A stretch of 64,000 nt of DNA, from the NCBI GenBank assembly GCA_004369085.1, contig ML210177.1, positions 164,885-228,884 of the forward strand, read 5' to 3'. Shown in pieces: positions 14,297 through 63,616 of the stretch (the first letter of the stretch is position 1; every line of letters begins with the position of its first letter). Both the position numbers and the translations under genes were made by a program. Below the pieces are notes generated by a model. The model was not told the DNA's origin. It made no database searches and saw nothing but the letters and a program-made list of their open reading frames with translations. The DNA is from Coprinopsis marcescibilis (taxonomy: Eukaryota; Basidiomycota; Agaricomycetes; Agaricales; Psathyrellaceae).

Positions 14297-16545
14297 ATGG
14301 ACCTCCAACCTCACTCCCCCGTGCGCAGCATCGCAGAGAGCAAGAGGCAGTTAAGGGAATCGATATGGCTAAGCGCGGACATCGACACCAAGGAGATCCT
14401 TCGACAGCTCTCGCTCTCAAATCCCTGGCCAGAGCTTATCACTTATGACGGTTCGGCTTGTTCGTGCAACACTCAGAAGCATGAGACAAGCTCCTCAGCC
14501 TCAGGAACGAGCTCATGCGCCCTCATATCCATGTTTTGTGCGCGCACAATCCTGGATCTTGAGAAGCAGGTTAGGGCCCGCGAATACAGAAGCGAGGGTC
14601 TTTCAAAGGAAGACGAAGCATCTGGCCTCCTTGATGACATCTTGTCTGAGCGCACCGTCCAGGTCGGTATCTGACATGCATCACCATCTCACAGTCCATG
14701 AACCCGCCAACTGATATCCAATAATAGAGAATCGTTTCTATCGGACAGCATCTAAAGGGTGCTTTACGGATGAAACCTGCAGAGTTATTGGACGTCCCTA
14801 TGTTCGAGCAAGTTTTCCTTTCCCAGAACAGGCTCGAGCAATTCGCGTCTTACGAAGAGATCTTGACTGTGTTAGAGTAAGCATGTTTATCTCAGATTAA
14901 TATAAGCTTAATATAACCCTTTCTGACTTCCAAACCTTAGCCACCTATGTAACGATGGCGTCAAGCGAATTGCATCCACAGTCATAACTCAGGGTGGTCA
15001 GAGCGTTGTTTGTGTGCGAATGTCAGTACTCGAGGAGGACCTGTTCGTCTTGTTTGATCCCCACCGCCGGCACGACCACCCGAATGGCCCAAGCTTTATG
15101 CTCAGTACCTGTCGCAAGACCACTGCGAAACACCTTGACCGTATACTCGACGACCGTTCGCTCGAAGACTCAATTAGTGACATCGCAACCCAAACTTCCG
15201 CGGAAAATCATCGCCATATCGCTGCCCAGGTACTGAATACGAGGGATTCCTATCATCGGATATCATCCTATCAAAACGAACAAATGCTACGAGACTCCTT
15301 CCTGTGCATCCATGAAGAGGCTCTCAACGCCAGTGTCGACTACGTGAACTTCTGGAATCATTTGTTAACACCCGACGTTGGGCCAAGTGGTGCGAATAGG
15401 GCCCAGAGCAGTCATTTTGCTCCGTCGATCTCTCTGTCTTCAAGTGCCAGCTCAACCTATGACTCGGCCAACGCTCATCCACTCCCGCCACAGCCTCCAA
15501 CGGTGCCGCTCGCTTCCTCTAGAACCACCCATGTGTCAGAATCGTGGCGTCCTGACGTCCTTTTCGGACAGTCGTTGCTGGACTCGTTCAGTCTCAAGAC
15601 CTGTGAATTTGCGATGAAGGGAACCTTTGACTGTGCAGTATGTATCGACACACTCCCACTTAGTTCAAGCGTACAGCTTTCCGGTTGTGATCATCGGTTC
15701 TGTAAGGAGTGCTTGTGTGGTCACGTCCAGAGCTTCTTGAGCAATGGCCGCTTTCCGATCGAATGTCCTGTATGTCTGCTTGATCGAAGCATACCGGACC
15801 CTGGAAGTGAGTTTTTCATGTACGCTTTAAATTCTACTACTGACACGAAACACATCTTTTTCATTAGATGTGAACAGTTTTGTGCTGGATCGACTGCAGC
15901 TTCCCAAGGAGTGTTCCGACAAGTTCCAAGAACTTCAGATACTGCAACATTCCGTTCGTCTCGAGTGCCCCAAGTGAGAAGTACCGTGCCGTCGGCGTAT
16001 ATTGTAGGCTAACCACGGACACGGCTCTAGGTGTCACAACTCCGATCTTGTGCCACGGAAGGAGTACCTTCAGGCCAAGGTGCTCGCTTGTTCATCCAGG
16101 GGATGTCTAAACAAGTGGTGCAAATATTGCTCCAAGCCCATCACAGATACCAAAGGGAAGCATTCTTGCAAGGGGGACGGATTTGACAAAATGATGAAGA
16201 AGAAGGGGTGGAGATATTGCCCGGGTATGTGTCCCGTTGTTCGATCGCATTTACGACCTCAGCTTATTTACGCCATGTGTAGGGTGCACCATGCCCGTCC
16301 AGAAAGATAGTGGGTGTAATCATATGGCCTGCACTGCACCTGGCTGCCATTCGTGAGTGGTATTGACAGCAGAATTGGGGATGTACTTGTACTAACTGAC
16401 GCGCTGTAGCCATTTCTGCTATAAGTGCGGTAAACTTATTCTTACTTCTGCTACCGGGAGGGGCGTTGGAGAAGAGGTAACTTCACATTACGCCACTAAT
16501 TCTTGTCGACAATTCGAAAGAAAGTTCAAGTGCAGCATTCAGTAA
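14297..16545 (+). CDS. RBR-A: RING-between-RING E3 ubiquitin ligase with protease-like N-terminus and CaaX box
   Basis: Predicted RBR-type E3 that takes ubiquitin from an E2 onto a RING2 Cys and then to substrate. Seven exons (14297-14662, 14728-14876, 14941-15806, 15868-15973, 16031-16224, 16283-16352, 16410-16545) give 628 residues. N-terminal domain (about 50-300): Cys74 in TSSCALISMF and an Asp211-x-His213 pair in VLFDPHRRHDHPNG, a layout like a papain-type cysteine protease. A Ser/Pro-rich linker follows. RING1 starts at Cys403 (CAVC...CDHRFCKEC...CPVC), then IBR (RKEYLQAKVLAC...WCKYC). RING2 has catalytic Cys572 in SGCNHMAC, then HFCYKCG. The C-terminus is CSIQ, a CaaX box. First of three tandem paralogues. 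RBR call firm; protease-like call is inference. Confidence 0.87.
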
Positions 16546-17288
16546 TCCCTTTCGATCCGGAGCTTTCTACACTGCCCTCGGCCAGTGTAACACTCATTAC
16601 CACAACATTCGCTATCACTCGCGCCAGTAGTCTCGCATTGCTGCCTTTTAACGCTATCGACCACCAACAACAATTTCATGCAACATCCTGTTTTTCTGTT
16701 TTCTTCTGTTCTTGTTGTACAACACTATGTAGAACTATATCACCAGTCACCAAACCCCAGTGACCACAAGGTTACTATCAGCTCCTGTATTCTTACGACG
16801 ACTATCGCATTCACGACAATATGTACTATATGATCGCAATGAAATCAGCTTCCTTCCCAACTTCTTGACTTCCCTTTACCGTATGTAGTCATCCTTGACA
16901 TAAATAAATGTTCCTGACCACATGGCACACAGCCTCGGCTTTGCAGTCCATTTTGTTTCGTGCAGCTTGGAGGTCGATCGATCACTGTAAGGGTGCTTAC
17001 ACGGACAGCTCTCGCCTGGGAATTATACCTGGGGATCGTGCCGCTCTCACAGTGCAACGTTGCCTTTAGCTCCCAAGTAGGTTATGACACGGTTACAGCA
17101 TTCGGTGGTAACAATCTTTGCTAGAATGGTCAACGGGCGCTTCGCCACTGATGAAGCCGACTGCACACCTTCTTTCTTATCCTCCAACTGGAAAGACCCT
17201 ACCAACATTCCCACTCTTCACTTGAACCCTGTGTAGCGCACACAGTGGCCCGAACCTAGGAAAGAGGTGAAAGACGGCAGTCACAACG
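16546..17288. other. Intergenic spacer RBR-A / RBR-B
   Basis: About 743 bases between two tandem genes: RBR-A 3' UTR and RBR-B promoter. A short minus-strand frame (16845-17057) shows nothing recognisable. No repeat shared with the other RBR spacers was noticed by eye. Confidence 0.35.
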
Positions 17289-20109
17289 ATGGAGTCCACG
17301 GACACGCGGCAAGACGATGTTGAGATGCGGATGAGCCTTGACGACCTGGAGGAGCAGAGCCCGTTGGAAGGTCTTTATGACAACATGTCCGTGAACCCTG
17401 GGTCTATTGCTCGCGAGATTGAGCGTGTAGTGATTTTGCTACACGGTCAGAACTGTGGGTGCAACCCTAGGACGTCGCCGCCTATTGGATACAGAAAGAA
17501 ATGCCTGGCACTCGCTATGAAGACTGCGAGTGAGATGGTCGAGGCGGCTGAGCGCCATGCGGAGAAGAAACTGTCCTTTGGGAGGAATTGGAGCAGAATG
17601 AAGAACGCGGATGAGCTGGTGAAGGAGATGCTTTCGCATGATACACTTCAAGTATGTTGAATTGCTATGCTGTAAAGAATCATGCCAGGACTGATAGATG
17701 ATTTGCGCTAGGCATGCGACGTGCTAGAAGAGATCTGGACGAGACCCACAAATAACGTACTGGCGTTGGTCAACGTAGAGCCCTTCAAATCGAGGTTTCC
17801 TACGGTTATACCTTCGACTCATAGAGTGAGCTACAATGGCCTTCTGGAGTTCTTCCAGTATGTTTCTCCTAGTTTGTTTTCTTCATTTATTCTCAACAAT
17901 GTTATAGCGATATGTGGGCCAAGGCCAGCGATCCCTTCATTGTCGCCGGCGTCCTCCAATACAGGGAGGAAACCATACTATGTCTCCGACTCCAGCTCAA
18001 CTTGATTCCTTCCACATATATGGTCTTCGATTTCCACCCTCGCTCGAAAGAGATGCGGCAACCTGCATGCGTCATTCTCGCTTCCAAGGAAAACGCTGCA
18101 GAATACATCACGGCCCTTTTCACCTCAGAAGGCGGGGGAGATTCCAGGGAACTTTCTGCTCTCATCCTTCACCAGGGCTCTGGAGCCTCCCCCAAGTTCA
18201 CAACCTCTCCCATGCGCCCTCAGCCCCCACCACCACTCTTCGGAGATTTTCCAGCGACACCACCAGCATACCCTACCCCACCCAACTCGGCATCCAAGGT
18301 AACGCCAAAGGATAAGGAGGATAAGCCACGCAAACGGATCACCGCCCCAAACCCGGTTACATCTCCCAAGAAGAATCCGTCGAAAGCTCGGGTTCAGAGC
18401 GAGTTTGGGTGGCAAATGGCGTTGCAGAACCAGCGGTTGACTTTTTCAACCCCACCCGACTTGCACAAGGTTGAGGAGCCACCAGGTGCCCCAATGATCC
18501 ATATCGAATCCGTGGACGACGATGGGAGCGACGACCCACCAATCATCCAACACAAGGGAATCACAGATGCGCGCAGTAGTGCAAAGTCAGTTGTGTACGC
18601 TCAAGGTTTCGTCGCGTCCGACTCCAGCAAGGCGAAAGAACTTGCATCGAAGGATATAGGCTGGCAGCTGGCGCTTCAAAATATCACCATGGGCCAAACA
18701 GAGTCGAATATTAGCATTGACCAGGACGAATTCTTGCCCCCCAACCCGGCATTTCTGGGACACAGAAGAGGTTCCTCCGACAATATCTTGTTGAACTCGG
18801 GGAAGGCTGAAAGAACACTCCTATCTCAAACTCATTCCTCGCAAACTCTCCGGTCTGATGCTCAGCGACAGAAACCCGTACGCGATGATTTTAGTTGGCA
18901 GCTTGGCTTAGCCGCAAAGTCGCTGACGTTGCCATTGACGCGGACTACCTCTAATATACTGGGAGGCAGCGACAGCGTGAAACGGTCGGATTTCGGTGAG
19001 CTCTTTGTCTCGGGAAGCTCGGCCTTGGCCACCGGCAGTAGCCTTGAACAAGGAAAGGGCGCCAGGCCAGGAATAGTGACTGCAAAGCAAGAAAAATCAA
19101 CAAGCCGCATGCGCATCACGATCGACGAAGGCCATGCACGAGAAATGTGTTCTCAGTGCCTTGATTTTTTCTCCACTGATAACCTCGTCGTAATGGGGGG
19201 TTGCGGCCATTGCTTCTGTGTCCCCTGTGCGCGACGGCTTATTTTGGATAAACTGGAGCTTGCGACGTTTCCAATAACATGTGCAGCATGCATTCGGTTT
19301 GGAAACATTTTCCCTGGCCGTGAGTGATTACCTGCATGGCTCATTTTCGGTTTTTCATTTTTGCTTATGAACAAACAGAGGTTAGTGTGGAACTCCTATA
19401 CATGGTTAACCTTCCCGAGAGGGAGGCGGACAAGTTCCGTAGATTTCAGTTGGCCTCTACAACCATCAATGTAAGATGCAAAGGGTGGGTGCTTGCATTC
19501 TTGATGAAAGTATGCTATGGGCGTTGACTCCTCCTAAATAGGTGCAAGACTGAAGGTCCCATAAGTCGTGAAAGATGGTACTACGGCAAAATACAGCGCT
19601 GTCACAATATGGAGTGTGAATACACTTGGTGCAAAGCGTGCCACGAGGAATTAAAGCCAATGAGCAAGCATGAATGCAAAAATTACAAGATAGACGCACT
19701 TCTCAAACGAAACGGTTGGCGTCGTTGTCCTGGTAAGGATCCGTGCCACGTGTGTCCCAGTACTCCTGTGCTTAGTACCGATTTCCAGGCTGTCAGACAT
19801 CTATTCAACGGCCAAGAAACCCATCTAATCACATTGTGGTAAGCCATTGATTATCCGCCACTGTTTCTACTCGTAACAGCTCACTGATCCTCCTGTCGCT
19901 GCGCCTCCAGTGTCCGACCCCAGGTTGCCTATTGTAAGTGACCATCTCGACAACTTTTAGATCACAGCTTAATATTAAACAGCCATTTCTGCTACAAATG
20001 CGGAGATATCATTGCCGATGAGATGACTGTGTCCCCTGGGGTGCTTGCAGAAGCAGTAACTCTTCACTATAGGCGCTGCTCTCCGGAAGCAAAATGTGTC
20101 ATTCAGTAA
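17289..20109 (+). CDS. RBR-B: RBR-type protein lacking the RING2 catalytic Cys, CaaX box
   Basis: Paralogue of RBR-A, probably a pseudo-ligase. Eight exons (17289-17651, 17712-17857, 17908-19319, 19379-19484, 19542-19732, 19789-19838, 19911-19933, 19983-20109) give 805 residues. The N-terminal domain keeps Cys72 (YRKKCLALAM) and the Asp211-x-His213 pair (MVFDFHPRS). The linker carries three copies of the W motif: EFGWQMALQ (about 335), DIGWQLALQ (about 419), DFSWQLGLA (about 497). RING1 begins CSQCLDFF with CGHCFCVPC. In RING2 the family GCNHM is PSNHIV: Ser752 (TCT) replaces the catalytic Cys (TGT). HFCYKCG follows and the C-terminus is CVIQ. It may still bind E2 or ubiquitin, or act as a decoy; that is inference. 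Confidence 0.84.
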
Positions 20110-20494
20110 ACAACACACTAAATACCTCATACTCGGACTAATCTTCTCTAATTGGACTTTGCTCGGACACTGTACATTTTACTTCTTGGGCAATCATATC
20201 GTGTACATTCAGACTGATTTTATTAAGAATTATTGTTTTTATTATTATTAATCCAACAACTGGCGTAGACAGTCGTATACCCTAGACAAATGATTCTTCA
20301 AATTTCCCCGTTTTTGCCAAGACACGATTTCAACGTTGTCACCGCACGCAACTCACTGCATTGTTAGCGCCCACTACTGCTTTAGTCATTCAGGTTCATT
20401 TATAGTAGGCATCACGCTATGGAGGCAATGGTAGTAACTTCCTTCAAACCAACTCTTTTATCCTAATCCCCGTTACAACGAGCCATCATAGCCC
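20110..20494. other. Intergenic spacer RBR-B / RBR-C
   Basis: About 385 bases holding the RBR-B 3' end, an AT-rich stretch around 20215-20255 and the RBR-C promoter. Nothing else seen. Confidence 0.35.
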
Positions 20495-23375
20495 ATGGTC
20501 AAAGCCACAGCGCAAGAAGACGCGAGCAACACAGCGACAACAAACGAAACGAAAGTTGACAGCTCACACGGGAATGTCGTCAACGGTCAAACGAAGGGTA
20601 AGACTCGCCTGATGCACCTTTCAGCGGCTGGATCCCGTACCATCTCTCCCTTACTAGAAGAACATTCCGAGGCGATGTGCCCTCTGCTCGGTCTACTAGC
20701 AATCCAAAGCTTGTATTCAGCATGGGAAAGCAGCAAGTGGCTCCCCAGCGATGGCCAAGTTAAGCAACTAGAGGAGGTACTGAACAAAGAAAAGGATGCC
20801 ATTCAGGTCAGTAGGGCAATTTCCAACCGACCGTTCAATGTTCATCACTGACTGGATGGCAACCACAGTCACAATTTCGTCGTATCAAAGCCGTCCAGGA
20901 TTGTAACTCCACAGTGTCAGCACTTTTAACGACCCCTGTGCTTTCTTCTACTTTGGCCTCGTGTCAGGGTCAAGGCAACGAACCTGATGAGATTGCTCTC
21001 ACCTTCCAAAATGTTGTTGACAAGCTCAAGTACGTCGGTATGCACGAGTTGGATTCGGGACCCAACTGATCACAATCAACATCTAGCACAACCGGCCTTG
21101 TACCCACTGAGAGTCTACCAATTGCATCTCTTTTCTCGATTACATCGTCAGGAGGTAGCTCCAGCTTTCCGAGAGGGCACTCAACACTCGTGGCCATCTC
21201 GTTCAGGTTCCAATCTGCATTCAAAACACGCTTTCTGGTTGCAGGCTACCTTCTCACCGCCAATCATGACGTATCCAACTTCCAGGTCGAGGTTTTCGAA
21301 AGTGATAAACTTGCAGCTGATTGCATTATGGGCTTGCTAGAGAAACTGGATGCAACCGCATTCCGGCCTTACTTCGTCGCCCAAACGGGTGGACTACCGA
21401 TAGATCCAGCCTCGAACGGTACTGGAGATCGGGGGATATTTAACGATGCCACGCCTCGATCCACGCCATCCAATGAAGGCACCTCAGAAGACACTGTCAC
21501 ACCACCAGCAAAGTCCCCTTCGCCAGCCGTATCCTCCAAACCAAAGCGCCGCAAAGCAGCGCCATCACAAAGCAAGGTTCCTCGGAAATCTGGGGACGAC
21601 TTTAGCTGGATGCTCTCCCTTCAGAATCGGTCCGTCGTGCCAAAGCCCTCAGACGTCGAAACCCAACCATCGACCGAAGACAACGAACCAGATTCCCCTA
21701 GCGTTGACCTCAAGGTGCAAATGCACAGTGAAGATCAGCTGCAGCTGCTTTTCGGGCGCCCACAACAACGAACCGGCAAGGGCAAGCCTGCCGACAGTCC
21801 CTCTGATACCCGTGCGGGGAACGCAAATGTGGAAGCATCCAGCGAGTCTGTAGAGGCCAGCTCTACTGGACGTGGTGGCGCCGGTTCTAGCAAGCCGAAG
21901 GACAGTTTCAAGTCAACGAAGTCCCAGGACTTCCAATGGCAACTCAACTTGATGTCTCTCCAACCAATTGTTTACGAAAACGTTTCAAACGTTTCTCGTG
22001 GGTCAACTGCTGGCACCAAGCGAGCCCCAAAAGTCAATGGCTCTTGGTCGCCATTGATGCTTCGACCGGAACTTGCGGACGACGGGGAGGACTGGGTCAA
22101 TGATACGGAGCTGAATCCATTCTACGACGCGAAAGACAAAGGAAAGGGAAAGCAAACAACTCGCCAAGGCTCGGGAGAGCTGACGGTAGCAGAAGCGTTC
22201 ACGTATCGCAGGGCCCGCAACGAATTCGCATGGCAATTTGCTTTGGCCTCCATGTCCTTGAAACCATCGGAAGATTATATGAAGGAGAGAGAGGAGCAAA
22301 TCAAGATGTTGAAAATAGAACTTGGGCAAATTCCTTTCGACTGTCTAATCTGTTTCGAGAAGATTGAATGGGATGACGGGGCACGGATGAAAGAATGCGA
22401 GCATTCGTTCTGCAAGAGCTGTGCCTCGGGACATGTTGTTTCCAAATTACAGGAGGGGGAGTTTCCCATCTTTTGTCCTGTGTGCTTTTGTGATAGGGAT
22501 AGGAAAGGCCCGAGAGGAGGTAAGCATTTGTCTATCCGTTTGGCAGACATGACCGAAGTTGACCCATTTCTTGCAGTCGTTGACGAAGCCCTCATGTTCG
22601 AACTTGACCTTTCGCAAAAGGACCAAGACAAGTACGTTGAGCTCCAGATGGCTCAGGTGTCTATCACGCTCGACTGCCCAGCGTAAGTTTTATTGCTGCC
22701 TACTAAAATGATTGCCGAAGCTCATATCAATGTCCAGGTGCAAAAAAAGCATGCAGATTGCTCGAGAAGATTACCTGGCAGAACCTTTCATCGTTTGCCC
22801 ACTTCCCCCTTGCAAAAAGAGGTTCTGCCGCGCCTGTCAGCTCCTAGTTGCAGGGACTGAAACGCAACATGCGTGCAAAATTGACGAAGCACTCGATGAA
22901 CTCATGAAGGCCAATGGGTGGCGATACTGTCCGGGTAACTAGCTTGGGCTCTCCCATTAAGTGCTCAGAACTAATTTGATCTTCTGAAGGTTGCAAGACC
23001 CCAGTTCAAAAGGAATCTGGCTGCAATCATATGACCGTACGTAATGACTTCAGATCTAGAGTTCAACGCCAGATACTGATTGGCATTGGTTTACAGTGCA
23101 GGACGCCTGGATGCTCTGCGTAAGTTTGCCGTACTCTGGATCTCCGTCAGCTGCTGATTATAACTCGATAAATGCTCAGTCACTTCTGTTACACGTGTGG
23201 CGAGATGATATGGGACGCGACCTACACGAATACTTTGGGACTTGAAATTTCGAATCATTATAAGAAGTGTTCTCAATTCGACACGACTCCCCCGGTGCCA
23301 GTGAATGTTGCAGTAAACGCTGCTGTCAATGCAAATCGTGGCCGACGAAGGAATGGCGAGTGCTTGATTCAATAA
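20495..23375 (+). CDS. RBR-C: RING-between-RING E3 ubiquitin ligase with W motifs and CaaX box
   Basis: Third tandem paralogue. Eight exons (20495-20806, 20869-21029, 21087-22519, 22577-22682, 22738-22934, 22990-23036, 23097-23119, 23180-23375) give 824 residues. The N-terminal domain keeps Cys62 (AMCPLLGLLAI), and the first intron falls after the same Gln as in A and B, but the Asp-x-His pair is gone (GYLLTANHDV). W motifs: DFSWMLSLQ (about 329), DFQWQLNLM (about 439), EFAWQFALA (about 537). RING1 begins CLICFEKIEW, with CEHSFCKSC and CPVC. IBR follows, then RING2 with catalytic Cys748 in SGCNHMT and HFCYTCG. The C-terminus is CLIQ. It should be an active ligase that has lost any protease function. 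Confidence 0.86.
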
Positions 23376-24322: not shown

Positions 24323-24701
24323 TATCTATTATCCTCAATAAATACGTTCTCCCAAAGTGTGGAGCGTCAATGTAGGGCCCGACGCGTCCGAGTTCTGCGG
24401 TTAAATGCTGTTTATCTTCAACGACCACGAATAAGCCCCTCAACATTCCATATGTCATAAGAAATCTCCGCTATGGAATAAGGGCCAGTCCGCTGATTCG
24501 GTGTCCAGCGGGCAGGGGTTATTAGGCTTGGGAGTAGTACTTGGCCAAAAGGGAAGAACTGCGGAAGATAACTTGAAGCAAGTCCTCAATCAAATATTTC
24601 CCAGCGGAAGTGGTCGCCTACCGCTTGTTCCTTCCCGCCATTATCTCGCCTGGCGGTCGTTGACGTCGTGGTATCCGGCCACCGTTTTCGTTACAGAGTA
24701 T
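24323..24701. other. Intergenic gap ERV1 / GH47 gene 2
   Basis: About 379 bases: ERV1 3' end and mannosidase promoter. The mannosidase frame stays open upstream of its first ATG, but without another ATG start. Nothing else seen. Confidence 0.35.
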
Positions 24702-27169
<2,468 letters not shown>

Positions 27170-33258: not shown

Positions 33259-36200
33259 TTATCGCGGTGAATCGCAAAAGTTGCACTTGTCGGTAGTTGA
33301 CGCAGGGTTCGACAGCATACAAATTGAACAGTTCCATCCAGAGGCTGAAGGCTGTTTGAGTCCTGCTGCACCCCAGTCGAACGCTTTAGGAGGGGCCACC
33401 GGGAGTTTGGCGGCGCCTGGACGAGGCTCTTCACATGCAGTACATCTTTCTTTTGCACTGTCAGGATTCTGGACCATGCATGTAGAACATGTCCACCCAG
33501 AAGCAGCAGTCGGGGGCTTAACGCCAGCTGCACCCCAATCAAATGCCTTGACGGGAGCTACCGCAGGTTTCGTTGCGCCTGGTCGCGGTTCTTCGCACGC
33601 GGTACACTTGTCTGCTACGCTTTCCGGGTTTTGCACCATACACGTCGGACAACTCCATGTAGACCCCATAGACTTCATCATCCCGGCTGCCCCCCAATTG
33701 AACGCCGGTTTTGGAGCCTCCTTTGCAGCAGCACTGGGGCGCGGGGAATCGCAAACGGTGCATTTGTCCGCGACCGAATCCGGGTTCGAGAGCATGCATG
33801 TTCCGCAATTCCAGTTGGACCCGCTCGAGTCTGGTGCTTTAATGCCCGCACCAGACCAGTTGAAGCCAGCTGTTGCAGGTTTGGGAGGTGTTGGAAGCTT
33901 AGAAGGCCCAGCTTCCAATGCCTCGCGACTGAAATCGAAGGTTGGGAGGGACGACGCGGGCTTCGATCTGGCTTCCTCACGAGCAACAGAGTCCTGGGTC
34001 CTTCCGAACGCAGTCGCAGTGGAAGCAAAGCTGAAAACAGGGAGATCAGACACGTCCATGGCCAAAACCTGAGCTTTTGGGTCGACAGGGACCCTGGTTT
34101 CCTTCGCCTCTACTGGTTTCGACGCTGTCTCCGTAGCTCCATTCGCGAGTGCCGATGATTTAGAGAACGCAGACGGGAAAGACGGGAAGGAGGGCTGGAA
34201 AGTGGGTGGTGGCGGGGCGTCAAGGTCCATGTCCGAAATCGCGAAAGGCTTGTCTGGTTGCGAACTCGGAGATGCCGGCGTAGAGGTTCCTTCCGGTTTG
34301 TAGCTTTCCCGGAGTTTGCTAGGTCTGAAAGGGGCTGTTGTGGCTTTCAACCCACTGAACGATGACCTGGAGTTTAATCCATTCGAGGTGCTTGTTGAAG
34401 GGCCGGATCCGTTCCCCGAAATGGATGTCGTCGCGCCTGGGTCAGCTTTGGGCGTCTGAACCTCTTCGACAACGACATCCGGGAGCGACTGAGCGGGAGA
34501 GGCGGTTCCATTCCTGCCTTTCCTTTTCTTCGCCGAGCGGTCTTCATCGTCAACTTCTTCAACAATGTAATTGTCACTTGAGTTGTGTGAACCAGTGTCT
34601 GGTGAAGGGGAACGATGAGATTCTGAAGAAGTGGACTTTTGAAGGTGCGCTGGAGGACGCGAACGTTTGCTTCCCTAGATTTTTGAAGTTCAACATAATT
34701 CCACGCATGAGTTTACCAGATAACTTACCTTGGGAAGTGTGGCTTCAATGATTGCCTCTGCAGGATAATCCTTTAGCTTATCTTCCAATTCTTTCGCTTT
34801 TTTGTCGTCTTTTGAGTCAGTGGGCTGTCCTTCCGGTGCACTGGGTCGTCCTGTTGCCCTGGTCCTGCGGGTTGACCGCCGTGGAGGGCCAACTTTAGCC
34901 ACAGGGCTAGCCGTTTGGTAAGGATTGCTGAGATCCGGCTTCTTGGCGGGCGTCGCTTCCTTAATTAACTCTGACATGAAATTGGCTGCCTTTGTGGGCT
35001 TAGGTGGCAAGACGTCTGTTAGAGATTGGTCTGATTGAGAAAGATCTTCTTGTGACGCGTTTGGGCTTGCACCGGTCCAGGCTTGTCGCAGAGGTGAAGG
35101 GTGGGACGGAGTTGTGGGCTTCATCAATGTTGGTGTCCGCAGGCGTGAAGGAGTTTTGGGTACCGGAGGAATAAAAATCTTAGGGGGAGAAACGCCATTG
35201 GTAGTCGTGCGTGGGGCCGAGGAGGAAGAAACGGGGAAGGGCAACGCTTGCGGAGACGACTGTGCCGGAGAGTTGCGAACGGTCGTGGCTACCGAGACAG
35301 AGAACGAAGAATGGTCTGTATCCACTTTCCTTCGCTTCCCATCAGCCTTGCTAGATTCCCCAATGGCTGCGTTGTCCCTCAAATTTGAATTTTCCAGTGT
35401 TGATCGCGAAGCACCGAAAGCAGGCGAACCGTAGCGATTCCTCCGCGGTGTCTGCTTAGCGCTACCGATGCCTTGCCATCGATAGCTTCCATTGGGGTTT
35501 CTGGATAGAGTCTTTTTAGGCGTTGACGATGAGGAGCCCTGTGCCGGAGGAGGCGGTGAAAACGGTGTATTGCCTCGGCTAGGCGTTGCACTTTGGAACC
35601 TGAACGGTTCCGAGCGTTCGTCTGCGCTGGAGTTAGTATGACACGCGAAGCAAGACGTTGTGTGACTATTACATGGCATTTGCTTGCGCAGAATAGAGAC
35701 GATCCCCTCTACTTCAATTGCACCGAGCGGCCGCCCAGCAGTCTGAATCAACGCACTCGAGACTGTTTTCTCTCCAGGGATTCCCTTCTGAATCAGATTT
35801 ACAAGGGCTTGTGCCTCATCGCGTTTGAGGGAGCTATTGACAGTGCTACCCAAGAACTCGATTACGTTTTCCAATGTCGCGTGTGAGGTGGAACCCTCGA
35901 TTGGCCGTGGCCGTTTCGGAGACACCGTCTTCGAAGGTGACCTGGGGGGTCCAGCAACAAAACTACCAGGTTGCGATGCATCGATGTATGATGGCTCGTC
36001 GGCAACGATGTCGTCCTCCGGCGAAGATGATCTTCGAATCTAGGCAGGTTACACGTTTGTTTCGCGGACGAACACGAATCAATGGCTTGGACATACCTGT
36101 AAGCCCCTTCCTACATCCTCACTCGACGACCAATCTCCAAAAACACGACGGCGAATGGGTTCCAATAGCTTTTTAAAGCTCCATCCCTGACAATCCTGAT

Positions 36201-50489: not shown

Positions 50490-50613
50490 TGCAAACGAGT
50501 CAATAATGTGAAATGAATGGTCGTTGAGAAAGGAAAAACTTGAAAGGGAGTCCCGTTACATAAGCGATCCTCCTCATCTTCGCTCCTCCACTGTGCTTGT
50601 GTATGAACTCTCT

Positions 50614-54578: not shown

Positions 54579-55138
54579 ACCCACGTATTTCCGCTCTGCT
54601 CTGCTCTCCTGTCGATATATTTATGCTCAATCTCACTCAATGTGCAACGTTCTCTCTGGAGGAATCCCAGAATCACATGGACGCGACCCCTGTTTTGACG
54701 GAAGGAAATGGGAACGATCAGATTCTCCACACCTTGCGTACTACTGTTGAAGCGCTCGCGCCAAGGCTAATGTGCAGCTGCAAACAGCCCCAACGAATGC
54801 GTAACCATCCCTGCCCTTCTCCGCCGCACTGAAATTTTGAGTTTTGCTTACCGTTTGGCGGGTCTTGGATCATAGGGCGCTGAGCTGAGCCACTGATGTC
54901 ATGCCGGGATGCCTCCTGAGAAAGAGCCTGCTGCTCTCGGTGGGTCGTCTGACCACGTCCCACAATGTGACATTTCTCTGACGGTGTCGTTCACACCATC
55001 TATCCGTTTCAAGTGTCAGAACTGAGTATTGAGCAAACAGATTTTCTGCCTTCGGCAAACTGCGGCCGACGAAATGGTTTACATGGAGGGCGATACCCTT
55101 CTCTGTATGTAGCCGACTTGTGCTTACTTCCAGCGCTA
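54579..55138. other. Intergenic gap TMEM14 / PQ-loop gene 1
   Basis: About 560 bases. Open frames on both strands (e.g. 54870-55151 minus) have no recognised domain. It should include the PQ-loop 1 promoter. Confidence 0.35.
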
Positions 55139-56244
55139 ATGCCTCAGCCAAACGTTATTGTAGAGAACGTATTTGGAATCTTGGGTCAGTCGCTTACTTT
55201 CACCAAACCTGCAAAATTCTGTACAGGTTCTGATTCAAAGTACTTGGGAACCATTTGTTGGACAGGTCAAATTATTCCACAAATATGGAAGAGCTGGCGA
55301 CAAAAGTCTACTGTGGGCCTCTCAGATATGCTCATGTATGTAATTGCTGACCAGTGAATAAAGATACATGTATTAAGCCTTGCTTCAGGTTACTTTGGGC
55401 TATCTCTGGGATATTCCAAGGCACCTACACGGTGGTGCGATGGATCAACATTCCCCTCATAGTCCAGCCACAGCTTTTTAGCTTACTCGCATACATTTCT
55501 TGGGGACAGGTGCGCGTAAACTTCTGGAAAACGATTTTCCTATCATTGAAGCAGACAGTGTCAATTCTATTCTCACGGCGCTCGAAGAAGGTCGCCGTCC
55601 TTATGACCCTCGGCGTTGTTGTAGCTTCTGGTGTGGTCGAGCTCATTCTTATCATGGTCACTCGACCACTGAAAGAACATTCCAAGAATGTCGCCACTAC
55701 GGTGTATGGTGTCATTTCATCCATTCTTCTGGCCGTGGCCTTATTCCCTCAGTATTGGGAAATTTACAAACTCAAGGCTGTTATCGGGATATCCTTGGTA
55801 TTCATTAGCATCGACATCCTTGGGGGAGTGTTCAATGACCTGTCTTTGGTCTTCAAAGAGGAATTTGACGTGGTCGCATCCATTCAGTACTCTGTTGTAG
55901 TTGTAAGTCAACCCTTCCATGTGTCATTTATAATGGGAACCTGACGAAGGCGTCGATTCATGTAGGTGCTGGATTCCGTGATTCTGGTGCTCGCAGCTTT
56001 CTTCAAAATCAAGTCCTGGTTATCACAACGCGGAGAAGTGGAGACAAGTTCTGGAACGCTGGAAGAGATGCACACAGATAATCCACAAAGGAGTGACTGC
56101 AGGGCAGGCAAAGGACCTAGACCAGGATCCAGGACTATCACGCTTGTGGAAACATCTACCCCGAAATGCGGCGAAATTGAAATGGCTGGACCCGATAAAT
56201 CTACTTCAGTTACTCGTGTAGAGGATGCAGTCCCCAATTCATGA
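55139..56244 (+). CDS. PQ-loop repeat membrane protein, copy 1
   Basis: Seven-span PQ-loop protein, family of lysosomal/vacuolar amino acid exporters and sugar carriers. Five exons (55139-55184, 55227-55335, 55389-55509, 55555-55902, 55966-56244) give 300 residues. The two PQ loops are GQIIPQIWKSWRQKSTVGLS and ALFPQYWEIYKLKAVIGIS. The C-terminus is a charged tail. Exon 4 starts 4 bases upstream of the position used by copy 2, because a net 4-base deletion would otherwise give a stop; keeping the 45-nt intron also leaves the frame open. Tandem paralogue of 56484-57618, with identical exon 1 (46 nt) and exon 3 (121 nt) lengths. Confidence 0.82.
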
Positions 56245-56292
56245 AGTTAATGATCACTTCTTTGACGCCTGTGTTATCGAAACTCTCCTAGG

Positions 56293-56300
56293 TATATATA
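56293..56300 (+). promoter_or_regulatory. TATA-like box upstream of PQ-loop gene 2
   Basis: TATATATA about 184 bases upstream of the ATG at 56484. Position fits a promoter with a long leader. Motif only. Confidence 0.3.
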
Positions 56301-56483
56301 GTAGAGGGAATTCGCCAATTCTCAATTTCCCATTCTGACTCGTTGTTCGGAGAGTTTGGCCCCTTTCCGAGAGCTGAGTCATCGCCGACACCACTGAAAA
56401 GCTCCGAAGAGATCCTTCAAGCTTCAAGCTTCAGGTTGTCTCTTCACGGCGCCTGCATCAAGTCCAACTTCACCACGCCGATA

Positions 56484-57618
56484 ATGGTCCAGCCGAACGC
56501 TATAGCAGAGAATGTTTTCGGAATATTGGGCGAGTGTATTCTGACATTGGATTGTGTGGGGTGATCCTAGTATCAGATTCTCAACAGGAATGGCTTGCTG
56601 GGCAGCACAACTGATTCCACAAATATGGAAAAGTTGGCGAAGCAAATCGACCACCGGCCTTTCCGAGTGGCTAATGTGCGTAAAGATGCTCTTATATGCG
56701 GGAGTGCTAACTTACATATGCGTTCAGGCTTCTCTGGGGAACAGCTTCTGTGTTCCTCGGCGTATACATTGTCTCACAAAGGATCAACATACCACTGATG
56801 ATGCAACCTCAGCTATTTTCGTTTTTGGCTTTCGTCTCTTGGGGACAGGTGGGCATATCTACTCCTCACGTATTTTGGGCGCATGCTGACCCAGGGGACA
56901 GTGCCAATACTATGGGCGTGGACGGTCGTGCAAGGTCTCCGCCCTTTTGACGGTCGGGCTCTTGGTGTTCTTTGGTGTACTCGAATACCTTTTGGTTTTT
57001 GCCATGGACTCTATCGAGAATGACCGGTCAAAAAGTATTGCGACCAAGTTCTTTGGTATCCTGGCAATAGTCATCGACGCCTCCGCACTCTTTCCTCAGT
57101 ATTGGGAAATCTACAAGATCAAGGCTGTCATAGGAATTTCATTGACCTCCATTACCGTTGATATCCTCGGAGGAGTGTTCAGCAATCTTTCGCTCGTATT
57201 CAGGGAGGATATCGACGTTATTGCAGCAGTCCAGTATAGCTCCGTCATCGTGCGTCCCCTTCATTTCTTCTGAAAGTTATCCTAATGTCATCCTACCCAG
57301 TTCTTCGACAGCATGATCGTTCTAGCAGCGATTGGCTTTAAAGTGAAGCACTTGATGTCCAAGAGGAAGCGTGCAGGCGATGCGTCCGAGCTGCAGGAGT
57401 TCGAAGCTCTTCCACACCTCACCGTGCTTTCTCGGCTCAATTCACGTATTGAAGACGGACCTCCGGCGGGCTCTTGGCTAGTAACTGGGGTTCCGAGCGT
57501 GTTTTCGTATTCCGCTCCTTGTCTTCAGTCCCAATCCGAAGCTGGAAAGTTGACGTCCGCAAACATTATGTTTTCCACAAAGGTCGCGATGAAGGAGGTC
57601 GATACAAGATCCATGTAA
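56484..57618 (+). CDS. PQ-loop repeat membrane protein, copy 2
   Basis: Tandem paralogue of copy 1. Five exons (56484-56529, 56588-56675, 56728-56848, 56902-57249, 57301-57618) give 306 residues. PQ loops: AQLIPQIWKSWRSKSTTGLS and ALFPQYWEIYKIKAVIGIS. About seven hydrophobic spans, then a tail of about 80 residues unlike that of copy 1. The first intron (56530-56587) starts GCGAGT; GT alternatives here give a stop or the wrong frame, so it is read as GC-AG. Substrate unknown. Confidence 0.83.
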
Positions 57619-58261
57619 GGTTGTATGGACCTCAGGGTGTGTTAGCGTGGGATATAACTATCCGCCGAAAGGTGCCATAGTATACTAGAAGTACTGGTAT
57701 GTGCATTATATTAGGTTGATTATTTTCTTTTTCTCGTCCAATTTACGGGATCTTTGGTTGCATTCGATTTTCTTGAACATCATAATATCTTCTCGGAAGC
57801 ACGACTCTACTCTCCACTGGTGGTAATGGTAATTCCCGAGAAACAGGTCAGCTTTCTCCAACCCCAACCCAGGACCAATAGACGTCATAACAGTAACTTG
57901 AGGATGCCAGGGTAAACCGAGGTGATATTTTTTACGTGGAGATTATGGCCTCAAGGTTGCGAACTTCAAGCTGACAACACGGCTATCACACTGCAAGCCG
58001 CGAATGTCGCCAGCTGCCAGCTGTCTCTCAAGGTATAATGTTAAACTTCAAACAGATATTAGAGGGACATACACTATCCGTCTACTTGAAATGTACAACC
58101 TGAAGCACTATTTTCGCAATGAACTGTTCTCTGCACTGATATTGAGCGCTTAAACCACGGGCCGGAGTCTGTCCCTTCATGCTTCTGCTTCCCGTTCCTC
58201 TGGAATTGACAACTGATGGAATCAGACCTAATCAGACAGGGCATTTCTTCTGGCAACGCCC
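57619..58261. other. Intergenic gap PQ-loop 2 / F-box-like gene
   Basis: About 643 bases. Short frames only; no repeat or RNA gene seen. It should include the F-box-like gene promoter. Confidence 0.35.
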
Positions 58262-59569
58262 ATGATGAAGAAGAAGCAATCTGCCTCTCTATGCCTTCCT
58301 CAGCTCATTCTATTCAACGATCTCCCCCTCGAAATTATTGCAGAAATATTCCTCTTCTGGGCGGAGAATGGACGAAGAAGCCATTTGAGTTATCCATGCA
58401 TCTCCGCAGCTTACGATCCCAACAGCTACAGTCCTGTAATCCTTATATCTGTCTGTAAGCTGTGGCACACTATCTGCTATAACCTGCCCGCTTTATGGTC
58501 GTCGATCTCAATCCTCCACGCCGACGCAAGTTTCGAAACGTACCTCGGTGCGTATCCCGAGGACTATGACGAACCCCCGGCCGGTATGCTCTCAAAATGG
58601 CTGGCACGCTCTCGCAGCGCCCCACTCGAGTTCAATGCCGTTCAGGTCTACGAATCTGAAGCTATCGCCACTGCCCTACTATCAGAAGCACACAGATGGA
58701 AGACTATCACCGTCAATGGCGGATCCGGGTTACTCCAGCACCTCATATCACTACCACCGACCGCAACACCATCGCTGGAAGGAGTAGGCCTGTTGAACAT
58801 AGACCCAATAGCTTTCCTAAAGGAAAAAGAAGCATTCAATGCTCGACTTCGCAAATCCCCTTCTGTCACGCGAATGTTTTTGTCATTGAGGCCATCTCTT
58901 GTCGACATACTGGACATCCTCAGTGGTTGTCCTACCGAGCAGCTCACGGAGCTGAGGATCCTAGATCTCTCGGTTACTACAAGCGCATGCCTTGAAATAT
59001 TCAAGTGCTCTCCCAACCTTGTTCACGCCAGTTTCTCCACTGTGTTCCCTGAACCCCCCGAGAAACTGGCTGATCATCCACTTCCTCTTTCTCTCCCTAT
59101 CTTGCAAACACTCCACATACTGGCTAGTCAGGCGCCAATTCAGCTCCTCAAAAGCATAGTTTGCACATCACTTCGCTGCTTCGTCATTCAATATACACGC
59201 CTCGACCTAATGAAAGATGTTGAACCAGCCCGAATGCAACTCGAACGAAAGAACATCATCTTTAACGAATTTGTGGCGACGACAAGGTACATTGACCATA
59301 TGGCACCGCCATCCGCTCAAAGTCATATCAACCTACTTGCGCCCAACGTCTTTGAGGAGCTTGGGAGCGAAACTCTGCCAAGTCCAAGGAAGTACAAATG
59401 CCCAGTGGCTGGCTGTACACAACGCCATTCAGGTTGGCTCACCTCTCGATCGCCTGGATTGGCCAGGAGACTCCTTGAGCGTACCTCGTGGAATGGGCGA
59501 TTCTCACCAACGCAGGCGGAGCTCAGTGAGCTTTGGGAAGAAAGCATTGTAGCTTTCAAGAAAGGCTAG
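58262..59569 (+). CDS. F-box-like domain protein
   Basis: Probable SCF substrate receptor of the large agaricomycete F-box-like family. A single exon gives 435 residues. The F-box-like core is near residues 16-60 (LFNDLPLEIIAEIFLFW ... ISVCKLWHTICYNLPALWSSI), followed by Leu-rich repeats without sharp consensus (LTELRILDLS, LPILQTLHILAS). Near the C-terminus is a Cys/His patch, KYKCPVAGCTQRHSGW, of unknown role. It stands directly upstream of RBR-D. The target is unknown. Confidence 0.8.
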   Translation: MMKKKQSASLCLPQLILFNDLPLEIIAEIFLFWAENGRRSHLSYPCISAAYDPNSYSPVILISVCKLWHTICYNLPALWSSISILHADASFETYLGAYPEDYDEPPAGMLSKWLARSRSAPLEFNAVQVYESEAIATALLSEAHRWKTITVNGGSGLLQHLISLPPTATPSLEGVGLLNIDPIAFLKEKEAFNARLRKSPSVTRMFLSLRPSLVDILDILSGCPTEQLTELRILDLSVTTSACLEIFKCSPNLVHASFSTVFPEPPEKLADHPLPLSLPILQTLHILASQAPIQLLKSIVCTSLRCFVIQYTRLDLMKDVEPARMQLERKNIIFNEFVATTRYIDHMAPPSAQSHINLLAPNVFEELGSETLPSPRKYKCPVAGCTQRHSGWLTSRSPGLARRLLERTSWNGRFSPTQAELSELWEESIVAFKKG

Positions 59570-60191
59570 GGCAGATTATTAGACCGATCGCGAGCTTCTC
59601 ACAGCTTGACCTGCCACAAAGCTACGGAGCCCTCCCGCGACTTGCACACCTATGATGTACATACATCTTTCTTTATACACATTCTGAATTCATATAATTT
59701 CCAGCGCCTGCGTATTGCATAGCTGTATAATTTGGCATCGAAGACTGAGAATGACTCAACAAGTCAAAATCAGAGTCAATAGGCATAATATTCAAATCTC
59801 GAAGGACAAGAGCTAGCTGAACGGGTGGTATGCGGGACTTCTAACATACGTTCGTGGGTAAAATATCAATGCCCAGTCATTCAATGCTGTCGCAACGAGG
59901 CGGCAGCGAACCTTGACATATTTTCACGTACATCCTCGCACATATCCGAAAATGCAGTGTTACAGGAACGTGTCGGAAGCATTGCTTTACACACCCCGTT
60001 TGGGATTGCCTTCGTTCTGCTGCGACTTCATAATCGTACAGAATCCCCTCTTATGACCTTTATTTCACCCCTTTGAACTGTGTCAACCCTTCAAGCTGGA
60101 GACCAGACCGTCGTCGTTGCAGGTGCCCGGGGGCTGGCCGCAAGTTGACAGCTTACTATCCTCGCAGACAACGGCAGAGACTAGTACCACT
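59570..60191. other. Intergenic gap F-box-like gene / RBR-D
   Basis: About 622 bases. A short plus frame (59825-60076) includes a KYQCPVIQCC patch similar to the Cys patch of the F-box-like gene, perhaps a relic of a duplication. Otherwise nothing recognised. Confidence 0.35.
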
Positions 60192-61298
60192 ATGGATCCA
60201 CAGCCTCGTGCGTCGTCGTACAGCGACATATTCTCTGTTCTCGAGGCCACGACTTCCGACGTGAACAATGCCAACCCTTGTCCCCTCATACGTGAGGTTT
60301 GTGCTGTATGTTTCGACGAACACCACCCAGATGTGGTAGTGCGTCTTCCGGATTGCGACCACGTATTCTGCAGCCCTTGCCTGCTTTCGCACGTCCGAGC
60401 GAAGATGGAGGAGGGGATATATCCGATTGTGTGCCCGGTGTGCTCGATAGATTGGTCGAGGAGGGTGGAAGACAAAACTCGTATGTCACTACTGTATTTG
60501 TCGTACAATACGCGCATCTGACAATTCACAATCCACATTAGATATTGACCAGCGTGTGCTGGACAACCTGAGGGAAGACTTTCCAGACGAAGAATACGGC
60601 AAATTCGAAAACCTGCAGTTGACAATGTTTGCCATGGAGCTACAGTGCCCAGGGTATGTCCAAGCTCCCGTATCTCAGCTGCCGCTTCCCTCCTTAATTA
60701 TAACATCCTCAGGTGCAAGCAATGCATTAAGGCCGCTCGTGAAGACCTGGACAACGTGCTATTGACGTGTCCTGTTCCTTCTTGCGGATCGGTGTGGTGT
60801 CGAGCTTGTCAAAAGGTCATCTCAAGCTGTGAGAAGTCACATAGCTGCAGGCCAGATCGTAGGTTTAGGAGGATGATGCGGCTAAAGAGGTGGCGATTCT
60901 GTCCTGGTATGATATTGTGCTTCGAATGGTTGTGCGGGCGGCTAAGATCTGTGTTAGGATGCCATACCCCTATACAAAGGGCGGAAGGATGTCCGCACAT
61001 GACGGTAAGCAGCTGAACTGCCTCGACCCCGCTTGTCAGAGCATCTAGATACTGATCCCCACATCTTCAACACAGTGTCGCGTGCCTGGCTGTAGAACGT
61101 AAGCGGTTTAGGTGTCTTCTCACTGTGTTCGTCACGATGCTAACCGAATCCCTGGACCACTGTAACAGCCACTTTTGCTATCGCTGCGGGGGCACAATAT
61201 GGATGCCTGGCCACAGAGGGGACGCGTATGATGCGGCCAGCTTTCATAACAAGTGGTGTCGGGTGGTTTTTGTATTCAATTCTTGTTCCATTCAATGA
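60192..61298 (+). CDS. RBR-D: short RING-between-RING E3 ubiquitin ligase, CaaX box
   Basis: Minimal RBR ligase of the same family as RBR-A to C, without the N-terminal domain or W motifs. Six exons (60192-60480, 60542-60653, 60713-60906, 60958-61004, 61076-61098, 61169-61298) give 327 residues. RING1: CAVCFDEHHPDVVV, CDHVFCSPC, CPVC. IBR: CKQCIKAARED, WCRACQ. RING2: GCHTPIQRAEGCPHMT with catalytic Cys210, then HFCYRCGGTIW. The C-terminus is CSIQ. Exon sizes 194, 47 and 23 nt match RBR-A/C, showing common descent. The ATG at 60192 is the first giving a sensible N-terminus; 60117 is in frame upstream. Confidence 0.85.
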
Positions 61299-61868
61299 AA
61301 CCAACAACAGCCTACTTCCTTTATTTGCTTCAAGATTCGTCAAGTCAACGCGCATACTACATATCTGGCCATTCTTGTATATTAATATTGTTCCTCAATG
61401 ATGTATCAGTACTTGATCCTGACACCGGCAACAGGCATGCTACTCCGTGGAAATAAAAATGAACAACTAAAACGAGATCGGTACAACATGTCGATACAAG
61501 TTATCCGTGAGGATATCTTGCTTAGTACGATGACATATCCTCGAAAATGGCTACTGTATGATCATCTTCTCATATGTGAGCGGCCGCACTAACGAGCTCT
61601 GAATAGCTGTGCTTTGGAAGAGCGCACAGTAGCGGCGCAGACCAAGAGGGACGTCAAGCCTTATATAGGCGCCCAGACTTGGGCATCAATTGATCCCGGC
61701 CATAGCATTCCCACCACCACACAATTCAAGTTGCGCCATTTGATTGGTACCTGATCTGTCGAGCTCTTATATGATTCCTGTTGAGTTCTGCAATACGAGC
61801 CACTCTGGGCAATCACACCTTCTCTTCCGGTTCCCATCCAGATTCATCATTGAGCCCGTATCGGCATT
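61299..61868. other. Intergenic spacer RBR-D / RBR-E
   Basis: About 570 bases. I looked for an N-terminal domain exon for RBR-E here and found none. A TATA-like sequence lies at 61662-61668. Confidence 0.35.
61662..61668 (+). promoter_or_regulatory. TATA-like box upstream of RBR-E
   Basis: TATATAG, about 207 bases upstream of the ATG at 61869. Motif only. Confidence 0.3.
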
Positions 61869-63616
61869 ATGACGACCGTCAGTCCATCGCCCTCCGAGTC
61901 CCCGACCTCTACCACGACTCGAACGAGCAGGCATATCGACATCAAAGGAAAGCAGAAAGCGACCGTCTCAGACGACTCGGACGTCTGGGACGGTCTAGCC
62001 ATTGTACCAAAGAGCGAATTCGGACGGCAAACATGTTTACAAGCTCCTGATCCGTCCAAATTGAAGAGCTACCGCTCGAGTCAGCAGGAACGGTTGGCGG
62101 CATTGCGCAACAGCGACGGCTCTGACGACTTGAATGCCCCTCCAATGTATCGCGAAGACGATATCGACGAATTCCAGGCTTTAAGAACCAAGAAACACCT
62201 GGATCATATCTCGTCTCCTCCGAACTCGAAGCGCTACACACAAGACTTTGGATGGCAGTTGGCTCTCCAAGAGCTTTCTACCAAACCGACGCTGGTACCA
62301 GTCGGTATGGATGGCTTGGGGTCGAACTCATTGGCGAATGATGAAGACGTGAGCATACGGCCACCCTCAACTCCGTTTTCGACTCTCGACCTTGACAGTG
62401 CCGCAAAAGCTTTCTCCAGTTTCGCCACAACTTCGGAACAGAACCGGACTCAGCAACAGCCAGAAGCACCTCCTACCAATACCCACCCCCACGCCAGCGA
62501 TAGCCGTTACTCAACTCTCCTCCGCGAGAAAGATTCGAATCCTCATAAGCCTCGGTCTCAATCATTCCGTCGCGGTGAAGCGCTTCCACTGGTAATGGCA
62601 GAATCACCTGCCATTGCTGCGTTCCACTGTCAGCATTGCAGAGCTCAAATCCAAATCATAAATGCCGCACAAATTCCCAGCTGTGATCACATTGTCTGCC
62701 TCACCTGCCTTACAGATTACATCCTCGAGGAACTAGACAGCTCAAGATTTCCGATAAAATGCCCTGTATGCCTTGAAGACGACAATGGGTCACCATTGAC
62801 TGGTCATGGAAGTGCGTTGCCCATCATGTCTACTTCTTTCCCCTACGACGTCGACTTATTTCTTCCTTATGCAGTTATCACTCTTCAAGTTGCGGAGATT
62901 TGTCCACTTCCTTCAGGGGCCGTGACACTTCTTCAGGAATACGCGCTCGCTGCGAATTCTACTAAAGTATACTGTCCAAAGTAAGTCATCAGCGGGACTG
63001 GTGATTTCTCGGTCCACCACGGACACTAACTGCTTTCTAAAAAGATGTCAGGAAACAATGTTGGTAGACCGCCAACAGTACCTGGAGGAATCAGTCATTA
63101 CCTGTCCGTTGCGAAATTGCATGCATAGGTGGTGCAAGTTCTGTTTTAGGGATATGCCAAGCGGCAACCGGGGGGACCACAAGTGTAAGCCCAAGAACAA
63201 GGGCTCGCGAAATTGTCCAGGTATGTGGCAGCATGCAATGGCGTCTACTGTGATAAAGATTAGTCGGTTAGGATGCAGTGTGCCTGGGAAGCGTCTGATT
63301 TCAACCAACAACCACATCAAGGTAAGCCATTGTACTATAACAGTCTCTGGGAGGGCCTTTTGATCCAAGCCTACATTTTAACAGTGTCAAGGCATTGGTT
63401 GTCGAATGTAAGTCCCATTCGAAGTCCCATTCGATTTTGACCAAGGAAATTTAGGACTAACGAAACAATAGACACTTCTGTTACCAGTGCGGAGAAACAA
63501 TCGCCGACGAGGCCGCTATGGAGGATCAACAACTCGTCGACGACGCCATCATCATCCATTACCAGACTTGTAAACGGTCGACGATTCAGCAGGGGGGATC
63601 CTGTACTTTGATGTGA
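61869..63616 (+). CDS. RBR-E: RBR-type protein without RING2 catalytic Cys, alternative CaaX box
   Basis: Fifth family member. Six exons (61869-62811, 62875-62980, 63045-63220, 63272-63321, 63385-63407, 63472-63616) give 480 residues. The N-terminal 250 residues are disordered, with one W motif DFGWQLALQ (about 126). RING1 is divergent (CQHCRAQIQI, CDHIVCLTC, CPVC). IBR: CQETMLVDRQ, WCKFC. In RING2 the position of the catalytic Cys is Asn421 (STNNHIK), and the segment has one extra codon, as in RBR-B. HFCYQCGETI follows. The tail reads STIQ where paralogues end CxIQ, then continues to a new CaaX box, CTLM. Likely catalytically dead but still membrane-targeted. Confidence 0.83.

What the first reader, a model, noticed from the sequence alone, without database searches (positions are those of the whole stretch)
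14297..63616. A cluster of five RBR ubiquitin ligase paralogues that all end in a CaaX prenylation box
Read directly: the last four residues are CSIQ (RBR-A, stop 16543), CVIQ (B, 20107), CLIQ (C, 23373), CSIQ (D, 61296) and CTLM (E, 63614). Each has Cys fourth from the end, an aliphatic a2 residue, and X = Gln or Met, the X class preferred by protein farnesyltransferase. Five of five by chance is very unlikely. The mainstream RBR ligases (Parkin, HOIP, HHARI, RNF19 types) are not known to me as CaaX proteins. I infer a family of farnesylated, membrane-anchored RBR ligases.
Basis: partly seen in the sequence, partly recalled or inferred. Interest (0 to 1): 0.88.

Follow-up and report, generated by a model that had tools for sequence, protein, structure and literature searches.

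The report
Lipid-tagged ubiquitin ligase gene cluster
A mushroom genome carries five neighbouring, related genes for ubiquitin-handling enzymes that all end in a short tag for attaching a membrane-anchoring lipid; close relatives in other mushrooms have the same kind of tag, and two of the five appear to have lost the ligase's active residue yet still keep it.

Summary
All five window genes (Coprinopsis marcescibilis) can be spliced into open frames ending CSIQ, CVIQ, CLIQ, CSIQ and CTLM at the stated stops; C and D are identical to deposited proteins. The CaaX cysteine is separate from the last RING2 zinc ligand. Nine of 90 other homologues carry such a box: relatives of C (C. cinerea, Ephemerocybe) and of D (unnamed), and Gymnopilus, Flammula and Phlegmacium proteins. 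Two more CaaX-like ends are zinc ligands. Armillaria, Mycena, polypore and bolete homologues, and Crepidotus, lack it.

The genes belong to a known family, the agaricomycete fusion of a herpes-tegument-like deubiquitinase (VTD) with an RBR ligase (Erven 2022). New here: the CaaX box, a five-copy cluster, and an apparent split of activities. A keeps both catalytic sets. B keeps the VTD triad but has Ser for the RBR catalytic Cys. C keeps the RBR Cys but lost the VTD Asp-x-His. D is RBR only. E lacks VTD and has Asn for the catalytic Cys. All five keep 24/24 zinc ligands and the CaaX box, so "five ligases" is too strong. Prenylation is inferred, not shown, and several tails are short or hydrophobic for a prenylation linker. 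My literature searches found no description.

The parts
14297..16545 (+). Gene A: VTD domain + RBR, 628 aa, seven exons, ends CSIQ
   Evidence: spliced frame; Pfam IBR_1 above cut-off; VTD by alignment to homologues
14510..14530 (+). Gene A VTD cysteine motif SSCALIS (Cys74)
15053..15064 (+). Gene A VTD Asp-x-His motif FDPH
16315..16317 (+). Gene A RBR catalytic Cys572 (GCNHM)
16531..16542 (+). Gene A CaaX box CSIQ, preceded by basic FERKFK
17289..20109 (+). Gene B: VTD-like domain + RBR, 805 aa, ends CVIQ; RBR catalytic Cys replaced by Ser
17496..17516 (+). Gene B VTD cysteine motif KKCLALA
18026..18037 (+). Gene B VTD Asp-x-His motif FDFH
19824..19826 (+). Gene B Ser752 at the RBR catalytic position
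20095..20106 (+). Gene B CaaX box CVIQ
20495..23375 (+). Gene C: VTD fold without Asp-x-His + RBR, 824 aa (deposited FA15DRAFT_755248), ends CLIQ
23022..23024 (+). Gene C RBR catalytic Cys748
23361..23372 (+). Gene C CaaX box CLIQ, with basic RGRRR upstream
60192..61298 (+). Gene D: RBR only, 264 aa (deposited FA15DRAFT_667755), ends CSIQ
60990..60992 (+). Gene D RBR catalytic Cys210
61284..61295 (+). Gene D CaaX box CSIQ
61869..63616 (+). Gene E: N-terminus without VTD + RBR, 480 aa, ends CTLM; RBR catalytic Cys replaced by Asn421
63307..63309 (+). Gene E Asn421 at the RBR catalytic position
63602..63613 (+). Gene E CaaX box CTLM

Best explanation
These are five duplicated members of the agaricomycete VTD-RBR family (an N-terminal viral-tegument-like deubiquitinase fused to a RING-IBR-RING ubiquitin ligase), in a branch of that family that carries a C-terminal CaaX box. 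Inferred mechanism: protein farnesyltransferase attaches farnesyl to the CaaX cysteine, the last three residues are removed and the end is methylated; the lipid, helped in some members by nearby basic residues, holds the protein on a cell membrane. There, A, C and D would take ubiquitin from an E2 onto the RING2 cysteine and pass it to membrane-associated targets. The VTD of A, and perhaps B, would cut ubiquitin chains, probably K6-linked ones as measured for two other fungal VTDs. After duplication the two activities were split: A both, B DUB only, C and D ligase only, E neither. B and E would act as membrane-bound E2/ubiquitin binders that regulate or compete with the active copies. Shown here: sequences, zinc ligands, catalytic replacements, CaaX in relatives, VTD fold of a homologue and of C (predicted models). 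Inferred: prenylation, membrane site, linkage type, regulatory role of B and E.
Against: No prenylation, localisation, ligase or DUB activity is shown. Known prenylation substrates have a small or hydrophilic flexible linker of up to 11 residues before the Cys (PMC1175975, passages): here only 5 (B), 8 (A, D) or 10 (E) residues separate the box from the last zinc ligand, and the D-type tails are hydrophobic (VVFVFNS, LVFPFG). Under gamma-distributed rates, which include slow sites, 624 of 5,243 simulated Cys sites (12%) stay unchanged, so the simulation excludes only an average-rate site. The single-branch placement has modest support, and B and E are long branches. Crepidotus P0044, same suborder as Coprinopsis and Gymnopilus, lacks the box; in the tree it lies among the rows without it. 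In A and B the Asn six residues after the VTD Cys, nearly invariant in the family, is Phe and Lys, so VTD activity is doubtful. The ICMT and alpha-subunit searches also ring in some prokaryote controls, so they say little. A, B and E have no transcript or deposited-protein support here.
Confidence: 0.62

Rival explanations
1. The CaaX-like ends are not prenylated; the C-terminal CxIQ is kept for another reason (C-terminal degron, protein-binding tail, palmitoylation or extra metal binding).
For: No modification data; 12 of the 14 boxes share the letters IQ at the end, which could be a peptide-binding tail; short or hydrophobic linkers in B and the D type.
Against: Cys is exactly fourth from the end in all 14 although in the window genes the preceding stretch varies from 5 to 30 residues; the two exceptions, CTLM and CRIM, obey the CaaX rule; basic residues precede the box in many.
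Confidence: 0.2
2. B and E (and perhaps A's VTD) are decaying duplicates whose CaaX is merely inherited, not used.
For: Lost catalytic residues and long branches (about 1.9 and 1.5-1.6 substitutions/site).
Against: Frames of 805 and 480 codons intact with introns bounded by GT..AG, 24/24 zinc ligands, and the CaaX still present after branches of that length.
Confidence: 0.2
3. The proteins are prenylated, but mainly by geranylgeranyltransferase or a mixture, with the lipid serving protein-protein contact more than membrane binding.
For: Some CaaX boxes are used by both enzymes (recalled); the genome has three beta-subunit loci, two of them not typed here.
Against: X = Gln/Met is the farnesyltransferase class; in Arabidopsis CVIQ and CVIM are 0.07 of CVIL for the geranylgeranyl enzyme.
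Confidence: 0.1

Closest known systems
VTD-RBR fusion protein of Agaricomycetes (Erven et al. 2022, PMC9741609; abstract and passages read)
   Same: Same domain order; [quoted passage not shown] the VTDs of Serendipita and Serpula cut only K6 di-ubiquitin of the chains tested; Asp-x-His motif as in A and B.
   Different: Five copies here; CaaX box (the word caax occurs 0 times in the paper's main text); loss of VTD or RBR active residues in some copies.
Parkin / ARIH1 / HOIP / HOIL-1 RBR ligases
   Same: RING-IBR-RING fold matches; RING2 catalytic Cys position in A, C, D.
   Different: None is known to me as a CaaX protein (recalled); other accessory domains.
FBXL2, a prenylated ubiquitin-ligase subunit (PMC7729025, passages)
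   Same: A ligase component whose location is set by prenylation.
   Different: SCF substrate adaptor, not an RBR; geranylgeranylated by GGTase3.
MUB membrane-anchored ubiquitin-fold proteins (PMC4996978, start of abstract in a listing only)
   Same: Prenylated part of the ubiquitin system, acting at the E2 step.
   Different: Ubiquitin-fold; no RBR or DUB domain (recalled).

Membership tests
RBR E3 ubiquitin ligases | RING1, IBR and RING2 with 24 Cys/His ligands | tested here: met
   24/24 in all five; Pfam IBR_1 above cut-off in A, C, D and below it in B, E
RBR E3 ubiquitin ligases | RING2 catalytic cysteine, genes A, C, D | tested here: met
RBR E3 ubiquitin ligases | RING2 catalytic cysteine, genes B, E | tested here: not met
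   Ser752 in B, Asn421 in E
RBR E3 ubiquitin ligases | ubiquitin transfer activity | not testable with these tools
   needs an in vitro assay
VTD deubiquitinases | VTD papain-like fold with tegument-type DUBs as best matches | tested here: met
VTD deubiquitinases | Cys + Asp-x-His triad, genes A, B | tested here: met
   A SSC + FDPH, B KKC + FDFH; but the Asn at Cys+6 is replaced
VTD deubiquitinases | Cys + Asp-x-His triad, gene C and its relatives P0002, P0003 | tested here: not met
   no Asp-x-His
VTD deubiquitinases | ubiquitin-chain cleavage | not testable with these tools
   needs an in vitro assay
CaaX prenylated proteins | Cys at -4, aliphatic a2, X accepted by a prenyltransferase | tested here: met
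   five of five
CaaX prenylated proteins | box conserved in close relatives | tested here: met
   relatives of gene C: P0002, P0003; of gene D: P0090, P0091; not in Crepidotus P0044
CaaX prenylated proteins | flexible, hydrophilic linker before the box | tested here: inconclusive
   long and basic in C; only 5-10 residues after the zinc ligand in A, B, D, E, hydrophobic in D; no predictor was run
CaaX prenylated proteins | lipid attached in vivo | not testable with these tools
   needs labelling or mass spectrometry

The most novel reading that the evidence does not exclude
A lipid-anchored ubiquitin editing system: an ancestral single-chain K6-deubiquitinase/RBR ligase acquired a CaaX box and was then split by duplication into a membrane-held set with both activities (A), DUB only (B), ligase only (C, D) and neither (E), in which the lipid anchor is the one functional feature, beyond the zinc scaffold, that no copy has given up.
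Probability: 0.37. Interest if true: 0.78.

Novelty: new variant of a known kind. Interest (0 to 1): 0.62.

Why it matters
If true, this is a family of RBR ligases anchored by prenylation, which I did not find described (searches), built on a ligase that carries its own chain-cutting domain. It offers natural single-activity versions (ligase-only, DUB-only, inactive) of one enzyme, which would make the purpose of a fused ligase and K6 deubiquitinase testable in Coprinopsis cinerea, whose homologue CC1G_01003 ends CLIQ.

Tried and rejected
CaaX Cys as the last zinc ligand: rejected for the 14 members; accepted for P0039 (Trametes, CTLM) and P0066 (Phlebopus, CQLF), whose Cys is that ligand. A hidden intron in A's last exon: a GTAACT..AAG stretch exists by eye, but using it would shift the frame and lose the match to Gymnopilus FEKRLKCSIQ. 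CaaX as a general property of RBRs: other RBR regions of this genome were read (six regions; one more). For most the 3' end could not be fixed because of introns; two frames on C161 and C10 end without CaaX (HGGYN, HGSFV), the C80 gene ends MFVD, but one on C161 ends CVVM, so this control is incomplete and partly against uniqueness. Pfam for the N-terminal domain: no convincing family in the 8 proteins given; a PDB sequence search with P0036 listed only RBR and RING/TRIM chains; structure was needed. The ubiquitin-interacting-motif idea for the WQLALQ repeats: by eye the spacing does not fit; left open. Searches (CC1G_01003, 0 papers; RBR + Coprinopsis, 3 papers judged from the listing) gave nothing relevant; PMC12778051 uses CAAX only as a GFP marker (passage). 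P0021 looks mis-spliced (15/24 ligands) and was left out of the careful tree with P0085, P0077, P0092, P0023, P0080 and P0082. In the quick tree P0001, P0089, P0081 and P0086 were left out. My first models of A were out of frame and were corrected. Change made on checking: I lowered the main confidence from a draft 0.68 to 0.62 and the novel reading from 0.40 to 0.37, because the linker result and Crepidotus had been left out.
Full report
Observation. The five genes were rebuilt by hand from the DNA with GT..AG introns (A corrected). C and D are letter for letter the deposited proteins FA15DRAFT_755248 and FA15DRAFT_667755 of Coprinopsis marcescibilis, whose contig length, 228,884, is that of the window's contig. 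In all five the last exon starts at the RING2 motif HFCY, and the CaaX cysteine follows the last zinc-ligand cysteine by 5 (B), 8 (A, D), 10 (E) or 30 (C) residues. The genes are all on the + strand, as a triplet and a doublet about 37 kb apart. A DNA pattern for HFCYxCG found six places in the 36.3 Mb genome: the five genes and one on contig C80, beside an RWD-type frame, whose end reads MFVD. Searches with P0007 and P0001 found the family at these five genes; other hits were weaker and mostly at other RBR loci.

Relatives. Three protein searches gave 92 proteins; all C-termini were read. Leaving out the window's own C and D, 90 remain. Nine carry a CaaX box beyond the last zinc ligand: C. 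cinerea CC1G_01003 (CLIQ), Ephemerocybe angulata (CAIQ), unnamed P0004 (CTIQ), Gymnopilus junonius (CSIQ), Flammula alnicola (CSIQ), Gymnopilus dilepis (CSIQ), Phlegmacium glaucopus (CIIQ), unnamed P0090 (CSIQ) and P0091 (CRIM). Two others (P0039 CTLM, P0066 CQLF) only look so, because the Cys is the zinc ligand and the protein simply stops there. Three (P0005, P0024, P0081) lack the final exon. The other 76 have none; in four of these (P0071, P0074, P0085, P0092) the RING2 end is not complete by a simple pattern, so 72 are informative. They include Armillaria, Mycena, polypores, boletes, Tulasnella, an RWD-type outgroup, and Crepidotus variabilis. Crepidotus belongs to the suborder Agaricineae, as do Coprinopsis, Gymnopilus and Phlegmacium, so the box does not simply follow the taxonomy.

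Trees. A quick tree of 93 rows, with the tail cut off before alignment, put 70 rows without CaaX and the two look-alikes into one group (support 89, Crepidotus inside it), with every true CaaX row outside it. A careful tree of 86 rows puts 13 CaaX rows and the two relatives without a readable end (P0005, P0024) on one side of a single branch, support 77/74. One gain is the simplest reading; a root on the other side (one loss) is not excluded by the gene tree alone.

Is the box kept by selection? Along the subtree of the 14 CaaX rows (12.5 substitutions per site), AliSim under LG kept a Cys in all rows at 1 of 5,144 sites that were Cys in gene C; with gamma rates (alpha 0.72) at 624 of 5,243 (12%), because that model contains slow sites. 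The tail before the box varies in length from 5 to 30 residues in the window genes, so it does not look like a slow region. Across the 14 boxes a2 is I or L, and X is Q (12) or M (2). The 12 residues before the last four have mean net charge +2.6, against +0.5 in 78 other homologues, among them the two look-alikes.

Against prenylation. An analysis of known substrates finds a linker of up to 11 small or hydrophilic residues before the box (PMC1175975, passages). C and its relatives fit; A, B, D and E have only 5-10 residues after the last zinc ligand, and the D-type tails are hydrophobic. No prenylation predictor was run.

Prenylation machinery. The genome has three loci with the prenyltransferase beta domain; the one I compared matches solved farnesyltransferase beta subunits best (Cryptococcus, E 1.5e-43). 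Alpha-subunit repeats and ICMT-like loci are present, but those families also ring in 2 and 5 of 14 control genomes. Arabidopsis farnesyltransferase ranks CVIQ above CVIM and far above CVIL, and the geranylgeranyl enzyme prefers CVIL (PMC3017772, passages).

Mechanism, marked. Shown: sequences, ligands, replacements, conservation, predicted folds. Inferred from known pathways: farnesylation, removal of aaX, methylation, membrane anchoring. Inferred from the cited paper: K6 preference. Speculative: that B and E regulate the active copies by binding E2 or ubiquitin at the same membrane.

Novelty. Searches of the held library for RBR with CaaX or farnesylation, for prenylated membrane-anchored proteins with ubiquitin ligase, for VTD with RBR, and for Agaricomycetes with farnesyl found no description; hits were judged from listings (searches listed 15 of 17 and 12 of 23), and two were checked in passages. 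The library holds open-licence papers only. I call it a new variant of a known kind.

Noticed in passing
window genes B (aa 335, 419, 497), C (aa 329, 439, 537), E (aa 126): A repeated short motif of the form [DE][FIYL]xWQLxL in the low-confidence middle region; 22 pattern matches in the 14 CaaX proteins against 0.09 expected by shuffling, and 5 of 78 other homologues. By eye it resembles a VTD stretch of homologues (LQWQAQLL). Function unknown.
   Followed up: partly
L042 = G000:C161 minus strand, stop codon at contig 10991-10993: Another RBR of a different type in the same genome has a 995-residue open frame ending GGWCVVM, again a CaaX box; conservation not tested.
   Followed up: partly
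window 63616-64000: The contig ends 384 bases after gene E, so the tandem array may continue beyond the assembly.
   Followed up: no
gene C and relatives P0002, P0003: The VTD region of gene C still models as a VTD fold although the Asp-x-His is gone in all three, which suggests a kept pseudo-deubiquitinase.
   Followed up: partly
window 869-3089 and 24435-26678: Two stretches that look like related glycosidase-type proteins (by eye, not searched), flanking the A-C triplet.
   Followed up: no
window 33259-34674 (-): Long frame with four repeated W..C..C...N......C..C units, like RanBP2-type zinc fingers (by eye), perhaps a nucleoporin.
   Followed up: no
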